From assembly GCA_024224995.1 (NCBI GenBank), contig JAAENB010001331.1:1-31608 (forward strand): 31,608 nucleotides of DNA, given 5' to 3'. The translations under genes were made by a program, and so were the position numbers. Shown one piece after another: positions 8,159 through 26,159 of this stretch. The notes below the pieces were generated by a model. That model was not told the origin of the DNA. It ran no database searches and saw nothing but the letters and a program-made list of their open reading frames with translations. The stretch comes from a bacterium (lineage in GTDB: Bacteria > Spirochaetota > UBA4802 > UBA5550). Each line of letters begins with the position of its first letter. Positions within the stretch are counted from its first letter, which is position 1.

Positions 8159-9526
8159 ATGACCATTAAATGCCCAAATTGCCATAAAGATGTAGATGAA
8201 GTCCTCATATGCGATATATGCGACGCTCCGTCATGCTGCGAAGAATGCGTTGATGACTACGAGCACATTTGTATCAGCTGCGACAACCTGTTGTGCAAAA
8301 AACACGCCAAAGAAGGGAAATGTAACTCATGTGAGCTGCAATATTGCCCTGACTGCATAGAATCCTGTCCAAACTGCAAATCCGCGGCCTGTCCCGACTG
8401 CCTCATGACTTGTGAAGAATGCGGCAAGGAAGGCTGCCTTAGCTGCCTCAAAGAAAACGCGGACGGAGACTATCTCTGCGAAAAATGCCGTAGTGAGGAA
8501 AAATCCTGTCCAAACTGCAGATCCGTAACCAATGACCTCACTACCTGTGATTTTTGTGAAACCGAAATCTGCTGTGACGACTGCTACCAGGATTACGAGC
8601 TGTATTGCTCGGAATGCGAAAAAATGCTCTGTAAAAAACACGCGAAAAAAGGGGTTTGCAGCTACTGTGAAGAGCAATTCTGCTCCGACTGCTTGAAAAA
8701 ATGCTCGGTTTGCGGCAAACCGACATGCACCAATTGCCTGGATTCATGCACCTATTGCGATAGTGAATGCTGCCCCGAATGCCTGCAAACGGATGATGAA
8801 GGAGATACCGTTTGCACTTCCTGCACTGAATCGGAGGAGGAAACAGATGAGTCCGAAGAAGAGGAAGTAACGTTCATGGAGGTCTCTGAAGACGAAGAAG
8901 AAGAGGCTGAGGAAGAGGAAGAGGAATACGAGGAGGAAGCAGAAGAAGAAATCCCCGAAGGATGCCCTCATTGTTCAAGCACCAAAGGGCACCGCATCGA
9001 CTGCGGTTTATGCTCCACACAAATCTGCTGCGACAAGTGCAAAAGGGACTACCAGTATAAGTGCAAATCTTGCAGGAAGCTGCTCTGCGAAGACCATGCT
9101 GAAGAAGGAAAGTGCCCTGCCTGCGGCAAGCAGTACTGTAACCACTGCACAGTAACCTGCGACTTCTGTGGAACTGTTGTCTGTTCCAAATGCCGTAATA
9201 AATACAGCTATAAAGGACGTGCCGGATGTCCCATTTGCGATGGGAAAGAAAAGAAAGATGATGTTGATATCCATAAAGAAGATCCCGTAACTCCTTTACG
9301 GGAAAGCCGGGAGGCCGCAAGCTCTCTGTCGGGCAGTTCATTAAGAAGCAGTTCGAGAAGCAGTTCGAGAAGCAGCTCGAGAAGCAGCTCAAAAAGTTCT
9401 TCAAAAAGCAGTTTCAGCAAAAAATCGAAAACTCAGGAGACGGGCGGCTCAAGCATGACTACAGTAATTGTGTTCATTATGGTAGTAACGGCAATTGTTT
9501 TGCTGGCAGCTAAAATTTTTAAATAA
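8159..9526 (+). CDS. cysteine-rich triple-module protein with acidic linker, Ser/Arg tract and C-terminal membrane anchor
   Basis: 455 residues, not assigned to a named family. About 70 cysteines lie in three homologous modules (~5-110, 117-222, 269-360). Each starts with CPNC or CPHC and carries pairs of C-x2-C knuckles, a doubled Cys (CC) motif and one C-x2-H (CKKH, CKKH, CEDH), which resembles B-box/RING-like or tandem zinc-ribbon folding. Between modules 2 and 3 is a linker (~223-267) made almost only of Glu/Asp. Residues ~388-424 are a Ser/Arg then Ser/Lys tract, and residues 433-451 are one hydrophobic span ending in AKIFK. With no signal peptide this predicts a tail-anchored inner-membrane protein with a metal-rich cytosolic head. 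GGAG lies 11 bases before the ATG. It stands alone between divergent and convergent neighbours and a terminator follows. Confidence 0.85.
   Translation: MTIKCPNCHKDVDEVLICDICDAPSCCEECVDDYEHICISCDNLLCKKHAKEGKCNSCELQYCPDCIESCPNCKSAACPDCLMTCEECGKEGCLSCLKENADGDYLCEKCRSEEKSCPNCRSVTNDLTTCDFCETEICCDDCYQDYELYCSECEKMLCKKHAKKGVCSYCEEQFCSDCLKKCSVCGKPTCTNCLDSCTYCDSECCPECLQTDDEGDTVCTSCTESEEETDESEEEEVTFMEVSEDEEEEAEEEEEEYEEEAEEEIPEGCPHCSSTKGHRIDCGLCSTQICCDKCKRDYQYKCKSCRKLLCEDHAEEGKCPACGKQYCNHCTVTCDFCGTVVCSKCRNKYSYKGRAGCPICDGKEKKDDVDIHKEDPVTPLRESREAASSLSGSSLRSSSRSSSRSSSRSSSKSSSKSSFSKKSKTQETGGSSMTTVIVFIMVVTAIVLLAAKIFK
9344..9415 (+). repeat. 12-bp tandem repeat coding for the Arg/Lys-Ser-Ser-Ser tract
   Basis: Six in-frame 12-bp units follow AGAAGCAGTTCG at 9344, 9356, 9368, 9380, 9392 and 9404. 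The first four differ at one or two positions and the last two have drifted to AAAAGTTCTTCA and AAAAGCAGTTTC. The unit encodes Arg-Ser-Ser-Ser. Near-identity at DNA level points to slippage or recent expansion, so copy number may vary between strains. Confidence 0.85.
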
Positions 9527-15906: not shown

Positions 15907-15951
15907 AATAGACTTAAAATATGAGAATTTTTCTCATATTTTAAGTCTATT
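15907..15951 (-). terminator. 21-bp perfect AT-rich hairpin upstream of the ATPase/RloB operon
   Basis: Bases 15907-15927 pair perfectly with 15931-15951 around a 3-base loop. On the minus strand the stem is followed by TTTTT, so it can terminate transcription coming from the 16010-16606 gene and isolate the operon. A further GTAGAAT/ATTCTAC pair flanks it (15894-15900 and 15949-15955). It could also act as an operator or attenuator for the operon, 30 bases ahead of its start codon. Confidence 0.65.
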
Positions 15952-19657: not shown

Positions 19658-19789
19658 GAATTGCTCTCACCTGTTCAACAGAATATTTGAAAAAAAAATC
19701 AAATAGCCCAAAATTAAGTTGCCAATTTTGATATTTTACCCCTGAATATAACCTACTAACCTATGAATTGTGAAATAAGGAAACACGAG

Positions 19790-20701
19790 ATGAAAAAAGT
19801 ACCATTTCCGGGAAAATCGATACTGCTTTTCACGGTATTTATATGCTCCTGTGCCTCTACAGGGCCAAAAAACAACAGCCGCCTGGAGTCGGAAAATCAT
19901 ATACTCAAAAAAAGGATTGTGCTTATTGAGCGCCAGAACAGTATTATTGAAGAAGAAAATATTGAACGAAAAAAAACGATAAAAAACAGGGAAGCAGCAA
20001 TTGTAAGCCGGAACTCCGAAATAAGCTCTCTTAACAAAAAATACAAAAACGATATGGACCTGGGAAAACGAAAGTACGATAATCTCATGAAAAAAAACAC
20101 CATCCTGGAAAAAAAGAGCAGTGAAAAGATCAAGGAATTAACCGCGTTGAATAAAAAGCTGGAAACCGACCTTGGCGGTGAGATTAAAAAGCTGAATAAT
20201 GAAATTCGCCGGAAAGAAAAAGAATTCGCCGGAACCCTTGAAAAAACCCGTAAAGAAGCCGCTGAAAAAGAGTTTTCCCTCGCGAAAAAAATAGAACAAC
20301 TTAAGCAGGATATCAGCAAAAAGAAAGAAACAATTCTCGACCATGAAAGCAAAATGATGGCCCTTTCCAGGGATATTGCCTCCGGGCAAAAACTGCTGGC
20401 TGAGCAGAAAGCCCTGGCACTAAAACAACAGCAGGAATTCACCAAAAAAATAAAAGAGCTTAACGAAGAGCTCAAAAAACGCCGCCATGAGATTGCGGGG
20501 AAAGACCAGGAAATCACAAAGCTCAAGACCACCTCAAAAAACGAAAAAACGATACTCCTGCAAAAGGTTGATAAACTTAAAAACAATCTTAACGACAAAA
20601 AAACACTCATTAACAACATGGACTCCAAACTCTCAAACCTCAAGGGAGAAGTAAATTCCCTTGAGTCTAAACTAAAAGAAAAATCAACTGAAAAGAAATA
20701 A
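19790..20701 (+). CDS. lipoprotein with long coiled-coil domain
   Basis: 303 residues. MKKVPFPGKSILLFTVFICSC is a lipoprotein signal with Cys after ICS (lipobox-like), then CAST. From about residue 35 to the end the sequence is almost entirely charged (Lys, Glu, Asn) with hydrophobic residues every third or fourth position, i.e. one long coiled coil. No enzyme motif. I chose the ATG at 19790 because AGGA lies 8 bases before it. An ATG at 19763 in frame would put nine polar residues before the signal. The role may be a periplasmic structural or tethering rod. It lies 14 bases before the UshA-like gene and is probably co-transcribed. Confidence 0.82.
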   Translation: MKKVPFPGKSILLFTVFICSCASTGPKNNSRLESENHILKKRIVLIERQNSIIEEENIERKKTIKNREAAIVSRNSEISSLNKKYKNDMDLGKRKYDNLMKKNTILEKKSSEKIKELTALNKKLETDLGGEIKKLNNEIRRKEKEFAGTLEKTRKEAAEKEFSLAKKIEQLKQDISKKKETILDHESKMMALSRDIASGQKLLAEQKALALKQQQEFTKKIKELNEELKKRRHEIAGKDQEITKLKTTSKNEKTILLQKVDKLKNNLNDKKTLINNMDSKLSNLKGEVNSLESKLKEKSTEKK

Positions 20702-20715
20702 AGTAAAAAGATAAC

Positions 20716-23010
20716 ATGAATAAAGTAAAATCCCAGGCAGCAACGATCATCAGGAAATTAGCCCTGGCTTTCCGGAACAGGAGCCACGGATGGCGACGCC
20801 CATGCACAATACACGACGTATTATTACATGGGTGGAGGAAAGCCAGGGCTAATTTCCGGCTGCACCCCCGCCATAGAAACAGGCAACTTTCGCAATTTAT
20901 TATCACCCTGCTTCTTCTCCCGGGAACTCTTTTCGCCCAGGATCTTACCCTGGTTTTAACCACAAACCTTGAAGGGAATTTCTCCCCGCAAATAGAGAAC
21001 CAGGAAAAAAACGATCCCTTAATTCTGCTGGGACAATCGATTGAAGCGGAAAAACGAAAAACTCCCCTGCTCTGGCTCGACCTTGGCAATGCTTTCTACC
21101 CCGGAGTCCTGTCCAAATACAGCGGCGGCAGGGCAATGATTGATTTTTTTAACGCCTTCCAATGCCGCTCCACCCTGGTATCGTCCAAAGACCTGAGAAT
21201 TGGCGCCGACTCTCTGGAGTTTTTGCAAAAAAAAAGCCAGGCCGCTTTACTTTCCGGTAATATCATCAACGAAAACAAGAGCGGAAAAAAGAATCCTTTT
21301 AAACCCTATTTTATACACCAGGGAGGCGCGGAAAAAATAGCCTTTATTGCCCTCTCTTCAAATAAAATATTGTTTAATATCGCGGAAAAAGATGTTTTCA
21401 AGATCCGTCTTGAACAGCAGGAAAAAGCCCTGGCTAAAATACTTGAAGAGTTGAAAAACAAGGGCATAAGCCGCAGAATTCTCCTTTCCGGTCTTGAGTA
21501 TTCCGAAAACATCACCCTGATAAATAAATTCAAAGAGATCGACCTGGTAATATGCGGCGGAGATAACCAGGGAAAAGTTCTTGAAGGAAAAATACTCAGA
21601 ATGGACCTGGAAGGCGGCCGGTCCATAATTTCCCTCACTGCTCCGGCAGAATACTACCTGCTTCACCTCTCCCTGGGCCAAAACTTTGGAATAGTTCAAA
21701 TAACTCCAAAGAAAACAAAGAATTATGCTGATATAAAAACTGACAGGTATCGTGATTTTATTAAGCGCATAACAATATGGAAAAAACAATCCGGCGATGC
21801 CGCAGGCAGGATAATCGCCAAAACAGAAGGAAAGACCTTTGAAATTGATTATAAAAAGATAGCCCGCCTTTTCCGCCACCGGTACAACGGGGAAGCGGCC
21901 ATTATTAAAAAAGACGCCATACGCTCTTTTAAAGAAAAAGAAAATATTAAACGGATTTCCCTGCTTTCTTCTATCAACGATAATTATACGGTTTTTGTGT
22001 ATAAACTGACGGGCTCGCAGCTGCAAACCGTGCATGGAGCTCTTCCTGAATTTTATTTTGATGGTTATGAAAATAGTAAAATTCAGGACTACGCGCTCAC
22101 TTCCTCACGGTTTTATTCGATAGTTTCAACACAATCGGTATTTGAACGGGTAGAAACGATTTTGGGCACCACTGTTCCCTATGAAAATACCTGGAAAGAT
22201 ATCCCGGAGCTCATAACAGAAGATTTAACGGGGAAAGAAGAAAAGGTCTTGTACCGTAAGGATTTTGATTATCTCGATGGGCGGTTCCGTTCAACTATTG
22301 ATATTTTTCTCTCGGGTTTTTATGAAAATTCCTATGTAAAAAAAGGAGATTCCATAAGCGCGCCAGCGGGGCAGGCATCGGAATCATTTAAAAAGTGGGG
22401 CACTGAAAGCAAAATAGACCTTACGATATATAACGACCTGCACAAGATCGTTATCACCCCGTATATTAATTACGCGAAGCAGGAAGATATTTATCTCAAC
22501 AACCTGCTGAGGGGAACACTTTTTTATAAACTGAATATCGATTTCCCCGCAGCACCATATCACAAGTCACAGGTCGATTCCGTGGTTGCCGAAGTTGAAG
22601 GATTACGGCCAACCCTTATCCGGGAAACGCTGGGGAGCGACATTGAAACCGAATACATAACCGGAAAGATTGGTATTGGTTTTGAAAAAAAGGTTCATGA
22701 TCCTGTGGAAGACGCCATATACGGTTTTGAAACAATACTAAAATTCAATATTGATTTTTTAAGTTATTTTTCATATTCCCTGAACCTGGACTCATTTCTC
22801 TCACTCACCAGTTCCGAAGAGGAATCATCCAGCGGCGGGTACATAAAAACCGATATTGAAAACGCGCTTTCTTTTAAAGTCAGCGAACTTATAAAACTTT
22901 CTTTCAAGCATAAATGGTATCATTATTATTCGATTAAACTTGAGGAGCATTATTATAACTCCCGGTTTATTACTTCCCTGGATCTCAAGACCGATTTTAA
23001 GCTCTATTAA
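20716..23010 (+). CDS. UshA/5'-nucleotidase-like exported protein with degenerate catalytic motifs
   Basis: 764 residues. Residues ~1-50 are mostly encoded by an inserted palindromic element (20753-20857), then a signal core FIITLLLLPGTLFAQ. Residues ~76-330 follow the UshA-type metallophosphatase fold: LTLVLTTNLEGNF in place of the TNDxHG motif, LDLGNAFYPG in place of DxGD, and VSSKDLRIG in place of GNHEFD. Most metal ligands are thus replaced, so phosphatase activity is unlikely. Residues ~360-510 resemble the 5'-nucleotidase C-terminal domain. Residues ~530-764 are beta-rich with aromatic strands and may be an outer-membrane or barrel-like module. The role may be binding rather than catalysis. 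It follows the lipoprotein gene and overlaps the convergent Nudix gene by 14 bases. Confidence 0.78.
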   Translation: MNKVKSQAATIIRKLALAFRNRSHGWRRPCTIHDVLLHGWRKARANFRLHPRHRNRQLSQFIITLLLLPGTLFAQDLTLVLTTNLEGNFSPQIENQEKNDPLILLGQSIEAEKRKTPLLWLDLGNAFYPGVLSKYSGGRAMIDFFNAFQCRSTLVSSKDLRIGADSLEFLQKKSQAALLSGNIINENKSGKKNPFKPYFIHQGGAEKIAFIALSSNKILFNIAEKDVFKIRLEQQEKALAKILEELKNKGISRRILLSGLEYSENITLINKFKEIDLVICGGDNQGKVLEGKILRMDLEGGRSIISLTAPAEYYLLHLSLGQNFGIVQITPKKTKNYADIKTDRYRDFIKRITIWKKQSGDAAGRIIAKTEGKTFEIDYKKIARLFRHRYNGEAAIIKKDAIRSFKEKENIKRISLLSSINDNYTVFVYKLTGSQLQTVHGALPEFYFDGYENSKIQDYALTSSRFYSIVSTQSVFERVETILGTTVPYENTWKDIPELITEDLTGKEEKVLYRKDFDYLDGRFRSTIDIFLSGFYENSYVKKGDSISAPAGQASESFKKWGTESKIDLTIYNDLHKIVITPYINYAKQEDIYLNNLLRGTLFYKLNIDFPAAPYHKSQVDSVVAEVEGLRPTLIRETLGSDIETEYITGKIGIGFEKKVHDPVEDAIYGFETILKFNIDFLSYFSYSLNLDSFLSLTSSEEESSSGGYIKTDIENALSFKVSELIKLSFKHKWYHYYSIKLEEHYYNSRFITSLDLKTDFKLY
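20753..20857. repeat. 105-bp palindromic element inserted in frame in the UshA-like gene
   Basis: Perfect 21-bp inverted ends: 20753-20773 and 20837-20857 (GGAAATTAGCCCTGGCTTTC plus one base, and its complement). Inside is a nested palindrome with CCCATG/CATGGG and AATAC/GTATT arms. The length is exactly 35 codons, so the reading frame is kept. It lies between the start codon and the signal-peptide core. No transposase and no clear target-site duplication is seen. It resembles in kind the Rickettsia palindromic elements, which insert in frame in genes. Confidence 0.85.
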
Positions 23011-25268: not shown

Positions 25269-26081
25269 ATGGAAAATTCAACTGAAATTAAGCTTAACAA
25301 TCTCAAGGAGATTCTCTCCTCTATGGGCAGCCTTATAGTGGCCTATTCCGGGGGGGTGGACAGCACCTTCCTGGTTCATATCGCCCATAATGTTCTCAAG
25401 AATAAGCTGCTTGTGGCAACGATCAATTCGGAGTTATTTTCTTCCCATGAGATGTCTATGGCAAAAAGCGGTCTTAATAACATAAATATCGAACATTTGA
25501 TAGTTCCCGCTCATGTTCTTTCTATTGAAGAGGTTGCGTCAAATCCAAAGGACCGCTGCTATCACTGTAAAAAAGAGGTTTTTACCCGTATCAGGGAGCT
25601 GGCCGATTCCCGCCTTATCAAATATATTGCCGATGGCTCCAATTTCGACGACAGGGGCGATTACCGGCCCGGAAAAAAAGCATTGGAAGAGCTTGGCATC
25701 CGGAGTCCTCTTGATGAGGCACAGCTCACCAAGGATGAGATCCGTGTCCTGTCAAAAGATATGGGTCTGGATACCTGGGACAAACCGGCTATTCCCTGCC
25801 TGGCTACCCGGATCCCCTATGGGACCAGGATCACAGAAGAAAAACTGACCCGGATTGAAACCGCGGAAAAATATATTCATACCCTGGGTATAAAAAACGT
25901 GCGGGTACGGGATCACGGCGATATCGCCAGGATCGAAGTCCCGGCTAACCAGATGACCCTGATAATTAATCCTCCTGCTGCTCACCGCATAGCTGCTGAA
26001 CTAAAGGATCTGGGTTTTGTATATATTGCTCTGGATATTGAAGGATACAAAATGGGAAGTTTAAATAGAGGAATTACATAA
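25269..26081 (+). CDS. larE: ATP-dependent sulfur transferase LarE (nickel-pincer cofactor)
   Basis: Adenylates the pyridinium-dicarboxylate precursor and transfers sulfur to make the nickel-pincer nucleotide cofactor of LarA-type racemases. 270 residues: PP-loop SGGVDST (27-33), RCYHCKK with Cys97 and Cys100, and PCLATRIPYG with Cys177, which aligns with the sacrificial Cys176 of Lactobacillus plantarum LarE. The extra Cys pair could fit the iron-sulfur type of LarE seen in some anaerobes (established for the family in general terms; this protein is untested). larB follows after a GC-rich inverted repeat. Confidence 0.93.
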   Translation: MENSTEIKLNNLKEILSSMGSLIVAYSGGVDSTFLVHIAHNVLKNKLLVATINSELFSSHEMSMAKSGLNNINIEHLIVPAHVLSIEEVASNPKDRCYHCKKEVFTRIRELADSRLIKYIADGSNFDDRGDYRPGKKALEELGIRSPLDEAQLTKDEIRVLSKDMGLDTWDKPAIPCLATRIPYGTRITEEKLTRIETAEKYIHTLGIKNVRVRDHGDIARIEVPANQMTLIINPPAAHRIAAELKDLGFVYIALDIEGYKMGSLNRGIT

Positions 26082-26159
26082 GCCCCCCAACCCCCAAAGG
26101 GGGCGCAAGAGATCTTGCCCGGAATTTTGTTCTTTCGCCCCCTTTGGGGGCTGGGGGCT
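26081..26159. repeat. GC-rich inverted repeat between larE and larB
   Basis: Left arm 26081-26104 and right arm 26137-26159 are near-complementary over 23-24 bases (CCCCCAAAGGGGGC core in both). Each arm is itself palindromic. It starts on the last base of the larE stop codon. No T-run follows. Probably a dispersed palindromic repeat that may still affect larE/larB transcription balance. Confidence 0.75.

What the first reader, a model, noticed from the sequence alone, without database searches (positions are those of the whole stretch)
20753..20857. In-frame 105-bp palindromic element in the N-terminus of an exported protein gene
Perfect 21-bp inverted ends and nested palindromes span exactly 35 codons between the start codon and the signal-peptide core. 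The inserted residues (RKLALAF near one end, RKARANF near the other) mirror each other. In-frame palindromic elements are known from Rickettsia; finding one here, in the n-region of a signal peptide, is unusual and raises the question of whether the protein is still exported.
Basis: partly seen in the sequence, partly recalled or inferred. Interest (0 to 1): 0.75.

Follow-up and report, generated by a model that had tools for sequence, protein, structure and literature searches.

The report
In-frame hairpin element in spirochaete gene
A 105-base palindromic insertion sits in frame near the start of a gene for an exported protein in an uncultured spirochaete, and its central hairpin matches a family of small structured elements found between genes, and sometimes in frame inside ordinary genes, in this phylum.

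Summary
The 21-base inverted arms are perfect (20753-20773 / 20837-20857), span 105 bases, and lie in frame in a 764-codon gene between its only standard start codon and the signal-peptide core. All 83 homologues found have shorter N-termini, so this is an insertion. No second full copy was found; the window's own genome is not held. The new result is the core. GAGCCACGGATGGCGA (20781-20796) is a hairpin motif (with N in the loop) in 33 of 392 spirochaete genomes: 73 matches, 30 of them in two genomes, against 2 for the reversed control. Many matches belong to a covarying two-hairpin module with ANGGA loops and G-A/G-A flanks, resembling Rfam TwoAYGGAY and CsrA sites. In Turneriella-like relatives such elements sit in frame inside conserved genes (MoxR ATPase, acetoacetyl-CoA synthetase, probably MurA and LepA); a 97%-identical MoxR homologue lacks the insert. 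Best reading: a small palindromic mobile element carrying a CsrA-like hairpin, inserted in frame as Rickettsia palindromic elements are. Mobilising enzyme and CsrA binding are unproven: 20 Y1-transposase loci had no element beside them. The window copy has one canonical and one shortened loop, and its core match was also what led to the family.

The parts
20716..23010 (+). Host gene, 764 aa: exported protein with a distant 5'-nucleotidase/UshA-like domain
   Evidence: ORF; 83 homologues; weak UshA/NadN/SoxB matches over residues 107-286, far below cut-offs; PDB nucleotidases by profile; no Pfam match at E up to 0.001
19763..20701 (+). Upstream gene, 312-aa lipoprotein-like coiled-coil protein; conserved neighbour of the host gene
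   Evidence: tblastn match in 28 of 38 fetched orthologue loci
20753..20857 (+). Whole palindromic element, 105 bases, 35 codons
   Evidence: G+C 53% against 42% for the gene after it
20753..20773 (+). Left arm of the perfect 21-base inverted repeat
20837..20857 (+). Right arm of the perfect 21-base inverted repeat
20781..20796 (+). Core hairpin GA-GCC-ACGGAT-GGC-GA (ANGGA loop, G-A/G-A flanks), shared with other spirochaetes
   Evidence: 16-mer with N in the loop: 73 matches in 33 of 392 genomes, 2 for the control; best hit of model R1 in the window, E 0.026 (partly circular)
20797..20834 (+). Second hairpin CGCCCATG...CATGGGTG with an inner AATAC-ACGAC-GTATT stem-loop; loop ACGAC starts 27 bases after ACGGA and looks like a shortened ANGGA loop (tentative)
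   Evidence: fold and spacing; in the 23 hairpin pairs the spacing is 21-34, 26 in 7 of them

Best explanation
A small non-autonomous palindromic (MITE-like) element carrying an ANGGA-loop hairpin module inserted, in frame, into the n-region of the signal peptide of a nucleotidase-like exported protein in an uncultured spirochaete. It persists because one frame through it has no stop, the insertion lies outside the folded domain, and the start codon stays predicted to be unpaired. Shown: the palindrome, the frame, the absence from homologues, the recurrence and covariation of the core motif in the phylum, and in-frame insertion of related elements in conserved genes of relatives. Inferred: that the window copy belongs to this family, that it moved as an element (by whatever enzyme), that the protein is still exported, and that the hairpin can bind CsrA.
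For: Insertion: homologue N-termini measure 25-87 residues to the point where the query has 105 (83 homologues); none of the 38 orthologue loci holds an exact copy of the 12-base core GCCACGGATGGC. Family: GAGCCANGGATGGCGA in 33 of 392 genomes, 73 matches (my sum of the table; 30 in G131 and G337) against 2 reversed controls. 21 of 59 distinct instances have perfect flanking arms of 5 or more bases, against a mean of 1.2 and maximum of 5 in 200 shuffles. Covariation score on 14 sequences 0.421 against 0.158 shuffled, 0 of 500 as high. In-frame behaviour of relatives: a MoxR-like ATPase insert absent from a 97%-identical homologue, with other inserts at the same site in P0093, P0096, P0099 and P0100 (33 of 142 homologues aligned), and an acetoacetyl-CoA synthetase insert (27 homologues aligned). 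In three Turneriella-like genomes 21 of 26 examined elements lie in an ORF of 150 or more codons, against 2 of 17 in eight other genomes. In-gene sites with domain support include enoyl-CoA hydratase, MurA, LepA, IleRS, an Lhr-type helicase and peptidase M3. Long inverted ends around the same module occur elsewhere: 17 and 23 bases in two G012 copies (of nine loci examined; five share the end sequence), and 18 bases, span 96, around two ANGGA hairpins in G161.
Against: No second copy of the full element or its arms: window, plasmids, phages, viral contigs, 392 and 46 overlapping spirochaete genomes (3 of 392 gave only 21-30-base matches). No target-site duplication. With 2 mismatches allowed, the core is at control level in the 15 relatives G001-G015 (19 against 18, my sums) and in excess chiefly in G016, G017 and G019; the exact core is in 2 of those 15. 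Relatives in the family of G001 lie mostly between genes, unlike the window copy. The window copy fits R1 over one hairpin only (20 of 64 positions), and 1 base pair closes its G-A/G-A step. The long-ORF contrast has no control for ORFs that are long by chance in G+C-rich DNA.
Confidence: 0.7

Rival explanations
1. The element is a selected cis-regulatory site: CsrA (or a similar protein) binds the ACGGAU hairpin in the mRNA near the start codon and controls translation of the operon's second gene; mobility is incidental.
For: ANGGA loop with G-A/G-A flanks; PMC4333381 (passages) reports a tandem G-A and CsrA-motif matches for TwoAYGGAY. csrA found in 24 of 26 spirochaete genomes. GGA occurs 6 times on the coding strand of the element and 2 times on the other. 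In-gene relatives are sense-oriented at 13 of 17 sites (my tally; binomial two-sided p about 0.05, worked by hand).
Against: The hairpin lies about 70 bases inside the coding region, not over the start, and predicted pairing at the start is the same with and without the element (mean unpaired 0.862 and 0.863). Four in-gene relatives are antisense, and several G131/G337 copies lie antisense upstream of an ORF. None of the 38 orthologue loci has the exact core.
Confidence: 0.15
2. The palindrome arose in place by template switching (an inverted duplication around a hairpin), not by insertion of a mobile element.
For: The arms are perfect, known only from this site, and leave no target-site duplication. 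Arm sequences differ between relatives, and in L146 they include what looks like the start of the neighbouring gene.
Against: Does not by itself explain the exact 16-base core shared with unrelated spirochaete loci, nor an N-terminus longer than in all 83 homologues.
Confidence: 0.11
3. Ordinary N-terminal divergence or a wrong start codon: the palindrome lies before the true start and is not translated.
For: N-termini of homologues vary (25-87 residues), and no clear ribosome-binding site precedes 20716.
Against: No ATG/GTG/TTG in frame between 20716 and 20960. Most fetched orthologues also start soon after the upstream stop in their frame. A 21-base perfect repeat is beyond chance.
Confidence: 0.04

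Closest known systems
Rickettsia palindromic elements (RPE)
   Same: Short palindromic elements inserted in frame in unrelated protein genes (about 150 bp, passages of PMC10969869)
   Different: Different phylum and size (105 bases); no sequence comparison with RPE families was made; here the shared feature is an ANGGA hairpin core
TwoAYGGAY RNA (RF01731)
   Same: Two hairpins with AYGGAY loops, G-A/G-A step, outer stem; the spirochaete relative L086 scores below threshold (30.2 bits, gathering 43)
   Different: The window element gives no RF01731 match at E up to 10; second loop not AYGGAY; lies in a coding sequence
CsrA/RsmA binding hairpins (CsrB/RsmZ type)
   Same: ANGGA in hairpin loops, in pairs 21-34 bases apart in relatives; CsrA consensus recalled
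   Different: Binding untested; coding position; several relatives antisense to their gene
MITE and REP elements (REP mobilised by Y1/RAYT transposases; details recalled)
   Same: Short, inverted ends, dispersed copies in relatives (G012, G131, G337)
   Different: No transposase assigned: 0 of 20 fetched Y1-transposase loci had an ANGGA hairpin of 5 or more pairs or an R1 match; no target-site duplication in the window

Membership tests
Rickettsia palindromic elements | Sequence similarity to one of the described RPE families | not tested
   RPE sequences were not fetched
Rickettsia palindromic elements | Palindromic, in-frame insertion in a protein gene absent from orthologues | tested here: met
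Rickettsia palindromic elements | Multiple copies in the same genome | not testable with these tools
   own genome not held; single copy in the 31.6-kb window
TwoAYGGAY RNA RF01731 | Match to the covariance model at the gathering score | tested here: not met
   no RF01731 match in 20700-20920 at E up to 10; 0 of 26 spirochaete genomes over the cut-off, 12 of 26 below it at E up to 1, 0 of 14 control genomes
TwoAYGGAY RNA RF01731 | Two hairpins with AYGGAY loops | tested here: not met
   first loop ACGGAT fits, second reads ACGAC
Spirochaete two-hairpin ANGGA family described here (model R1) | Core GA-GCC-ANGGAT-GGC-GA | tested here: met
   exact 16-mer at 20781-20796; circular in part, as the family was found with it
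Spirochaete two-hairpin ANGGA family described here (model R1) | Second ANGGA hairpin 21-34 bases away and a closing stem | tested here: inconclusive
   hairpin at spacing 27 but shortened loop; closing stem is the 21-base palindrome, not adjacent
MITE | Terminal inverted repeats | tested here: met
   21 bases, perfect
MITE | Target-site duplication | tested here: not met
   none found
REP/RAYT system | Elements flank a Y1 (RAYT) transposase gene | tested here: not met
   0 of 20 loci in 8 genomes; no Y1 match among the 10 window ORFs scanned
CsrA site | Binding by CsrA | not testable with these tools
   -
CsrA site | GGA in the loop of a short hairpin | tested here: met
   GCC-ACGGAT-GGC

The most novel reading that the evidence does not exclude
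A class of translatable mobile elements in spirochaetes seeds CsrA-binding hairpins inside messenger RNAs: palindromic cassettes carrying TwoAYGGAY-like double hairpins insert in frame into ordinary genes, so that transposition at once adds a peptide loop to the protein and a CsrA site to the mRNA. The window element is one such cassette, in a signal peptide.
Probability: 0.26. Interest if true: 0.86.

Novelty: new variant of a known kind. Interest (0 to 1): 0.7.

Why it matters
In-frame palindromic elements are best known from Rickettsia, and PMC10969869 (passages) says it is conceivable that other prokaryotes have the same route of protein evolution. The spirochaete cases give one, with near-empty-site evidence (a 97%-identical MoxR homologue without the insert) and insertions in or beside domains of housekeeping proteins such as LepA and MurA. 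The conserved ANGGA hairpin makes a direct test possible: are these parasites that merely tolerate translation, or do they carry regulatory RNA sites into genes? It would also bear on TwoAYGGAY, which PMC4333381 (passages) treats as a family of unknown function.

Tried and rejected
Full-element searches: phages with the 105-mer (none); plasmids with 20700-20880 (8 records, 25-base matches to 20720-20744, outside the element); viral contigs with the arm and a 25-mer (none); 20 relatives, 392 and 46 genomes. The 27 hits whose context was printed and the 3 were short matches, most of them in unrelated sequence; their pile-up over the core led to the motif. Viral contigs with the 16-mer: 12 matches; L109 shows the two-hairpin form (which left out the other 11).

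REP/RAYT mobilisation: Y1 transposases in 23 of 26 genomes, but 0 of 20 loci had an element beside them; set aside. Target-site duplication: none. Rfam miRNA matches to the window (mir-3119, 26.5 bits, gathering 80) reflect a long hairpin and were ignored. csrA presence cannot discriminate (24 of 26). R1 was built from 14 sequences found through the window's own 16-mer or its variants, so its window hit is partly circular; L126 in that set has no clear first hairpin. The comparison of 26 and 17 elements used 43 of the 45 placements (one near-duplicate and L184 dropped); the 26 are of the 32 matches that one search lists for G016, G017 and G019, and L209 counts though it lies at the first codon. 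The 17-site orientation tally merges orthologous sites, includes sites at gene ends, and L190 was joined to the MoxR site by likeness, without its own domain search. One search had no chance control. On rechecking I added the mismatch result, which weakens the case in the nearest relatives, and lowered the main odds from 0.72 to 0.70 and the novel reading from 0.27 to 0.26; the two main rivals rose by 0.01 each.

Not in print: searches listed no paper whose title or abstract start describes such elements in spirochaetes; only open-licence papers are held.

Full report
What is there. The window gene 20716-23010 encodes 764 aa. Between its start codon and the hydrophobic signal-peptide core lies a 105-base segment with perfect 21-base inverted ends. 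Shuffled windows gave at most 15 (200 shuffles). Only one sense frame and one antisense frame through it are free of stops, and the gene uses that sense frame. No ATG, GTG or TTG lies in frame between 20716 and 20960, so translation from a standard start must pass through it. Its G+C is 53%, against 42% for the gene after it.

It is an insertion. A protein search gave 83 homologues besides the window's own protein. Counted to the same aligned residue, their N-termini are 25-87 residues long and the query's is 105. A genome scan gave 38 orthologue loci, by record title spirochaetes and Desulfobacterota relatives. The upstream lipoprotein-like gene was recognised in 28 of 38, and none of the 38 holds an exact copy of the core 12-mer. 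The protein is distantly related to 5'-nucleotidases. The source is an uncultured spirochaete by its best named matches; no genome is held for it.

The core is a family signature. Full-length searches found no second copy. However, chance-level matches in relatives piled up on one stretch. The pattern GAGCCANGGATGGCGA occurs in 33 of 392 genomes of the phylum; my sum of the table is 73 matches against 2 for the pattern read backwards. Two genomes (G131, G337) account for 30 of them, those read being copies of one form mostly between genes. Among the instances collected, 21 of 59 have perfect flanking arms of 5 or more bases, against 1.2 expected by shuffling. A second hairpin with an ANGGA loop often lies nearby: 23 such pairs, 21-34 bases apart, 26 in 7 of them. 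On 14 aligned examples the pairs covary well beyond shuffled and slid controls. One example, L086, matches TwoAYGGAY below threshold. A paper reports that TwoAYGGAY has a tandem G-A step and CsrA-motif matches (PMC4333381, passages). csrA is present in 24 of 26 genomes tested. A result that weakens this for the nearest relatives: with 2 mismatches allowed, G001-G015 show 19 matches against 18 controls (my sums), and the excess lies chiefly in G016, G017 and G019.

Relatives sit in frame inside genes. A model of the two-hairpin form (R1) finds matches in 12 of 20 relatives at E up to 0.1, 6 of 13 in the family of G017 at E up to 0.001 and 7 of 20 in the family of G001 at E up to 0.01; some of these genomes supplied sequences to the model. 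In the Turneriella-like genomes G016, G017 and G019, 21 of 26 examined elements lie in ORFs of 150 or more codons; in eight other genomes 2 of 17 do (my count for the elements; no control for chance ORFs). Homologue alignments show true in-frame insertions: about 18 residues net in a MoxR-like ATPase, missing from a 97%-identical homologue and replaced by other inserts, some in tandem, at the same site in four more of the 33 homologues aligned; and an insert in acetoacetyl-CoA synthetase. Profile offsets suggest others within or beside domains of enoyl-CoA hydratase, MurA, LepA (roughly 50-60 extra residues, by my reading of the offsets, where three elements stand 54 bases apart), IleRS, an Lhr-type helicase, peptidase M3 and MazG. 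By my tally 13 of 17 distinct in-gene sites are in sense orientation.

Long inverted ends around the same module also occur. In G012, of nine loci examined, five share an end sequence, and in two of these the other end is complementary over 17 and 23 bases. In G161 an 18-base perfect palindrome of span 96 encloses two ANGGA hairpins. The window element, with 21-base ends, one canonical hairpin and a second hairpin whose loop ACGAC starts 27 bases later, fits this architecture but not fully.

Mechanism. I judge it most likely to be a small palindromic mobile element that landed in frame in a tolerant part of the protein. What moves it is unknown: an obvious candidate, Y1/RAYT transposases, is common (23 of 26 genomes), but none of 20 such loci in 8 genomes had an element beside it. 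The start codon's predicted accessibility is unchanged by the element, so expression need not suffer. CsrA binding is suggested by the loop but not shown.

Against this reading: no second copy, no target-site duplication, relatives in the family of G001 mostly between genes, control-level mismatched cores in the nearest relatives, and a core match that was used to find the family it is then said to belong to.

Literature. Rickettsia palindromic elements were read about in passages of PMC10969869, and TwoAYGGAY in passages of PMC4333381 and PMC2864571. All other papers were seen in search listings only. The CsrA consensus and the details of REP elements are recalled.

Noticed in passing
window 15907-15951: A second perfect 21-base inverted repeat with a 3-base loop, between ORFs; simple hairpin
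   Followed up: no
window 26084-26157: G+C-rich 27-base inverted repeat (93%), terminator-like, just after the ORF 25269-26081
   Followed up: no
window 9344-9403: 12-base tandem repeat (AGAAGCAGTTCG) near the 3' end of a 455-codon ORF (8159-9526) whose DNA also holds longer internal repeats
   Followed up: no
L162 (genome G017, contig C2): Six GGCCATGGATGGCC hairpins 53 bases apart, with an ACAGGATGT-type or like hairpin between those printed, resembling a CsrA sponge array
   Followed up: partly
L130-L157 (several genomes, mostly G131 and G337): Near-identical copies of one core-bearing element, several lying antisense just upstream of an ORF
   Followed up: partly
P0099 and P0100 (MoxR-like ATPases): Two to three tandem copies of the insert peptide at one site, suggesting expansion after insertion
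   Followed up: no
spirochaete genomes: Numerous Y1-transposase matches in frames of about 200 codons (RAYT-sized, recalled), up to 10 matches per genome, with unknown partner repeats
   Followed up: partly
window 19763-23010: Two-gene unit (coiled-coil lipoprotein-like plus nucleotidase-like protein) conserved between Spirochaetota and Desulfobacterota, neither with a Pfam match
   Followed up: partly
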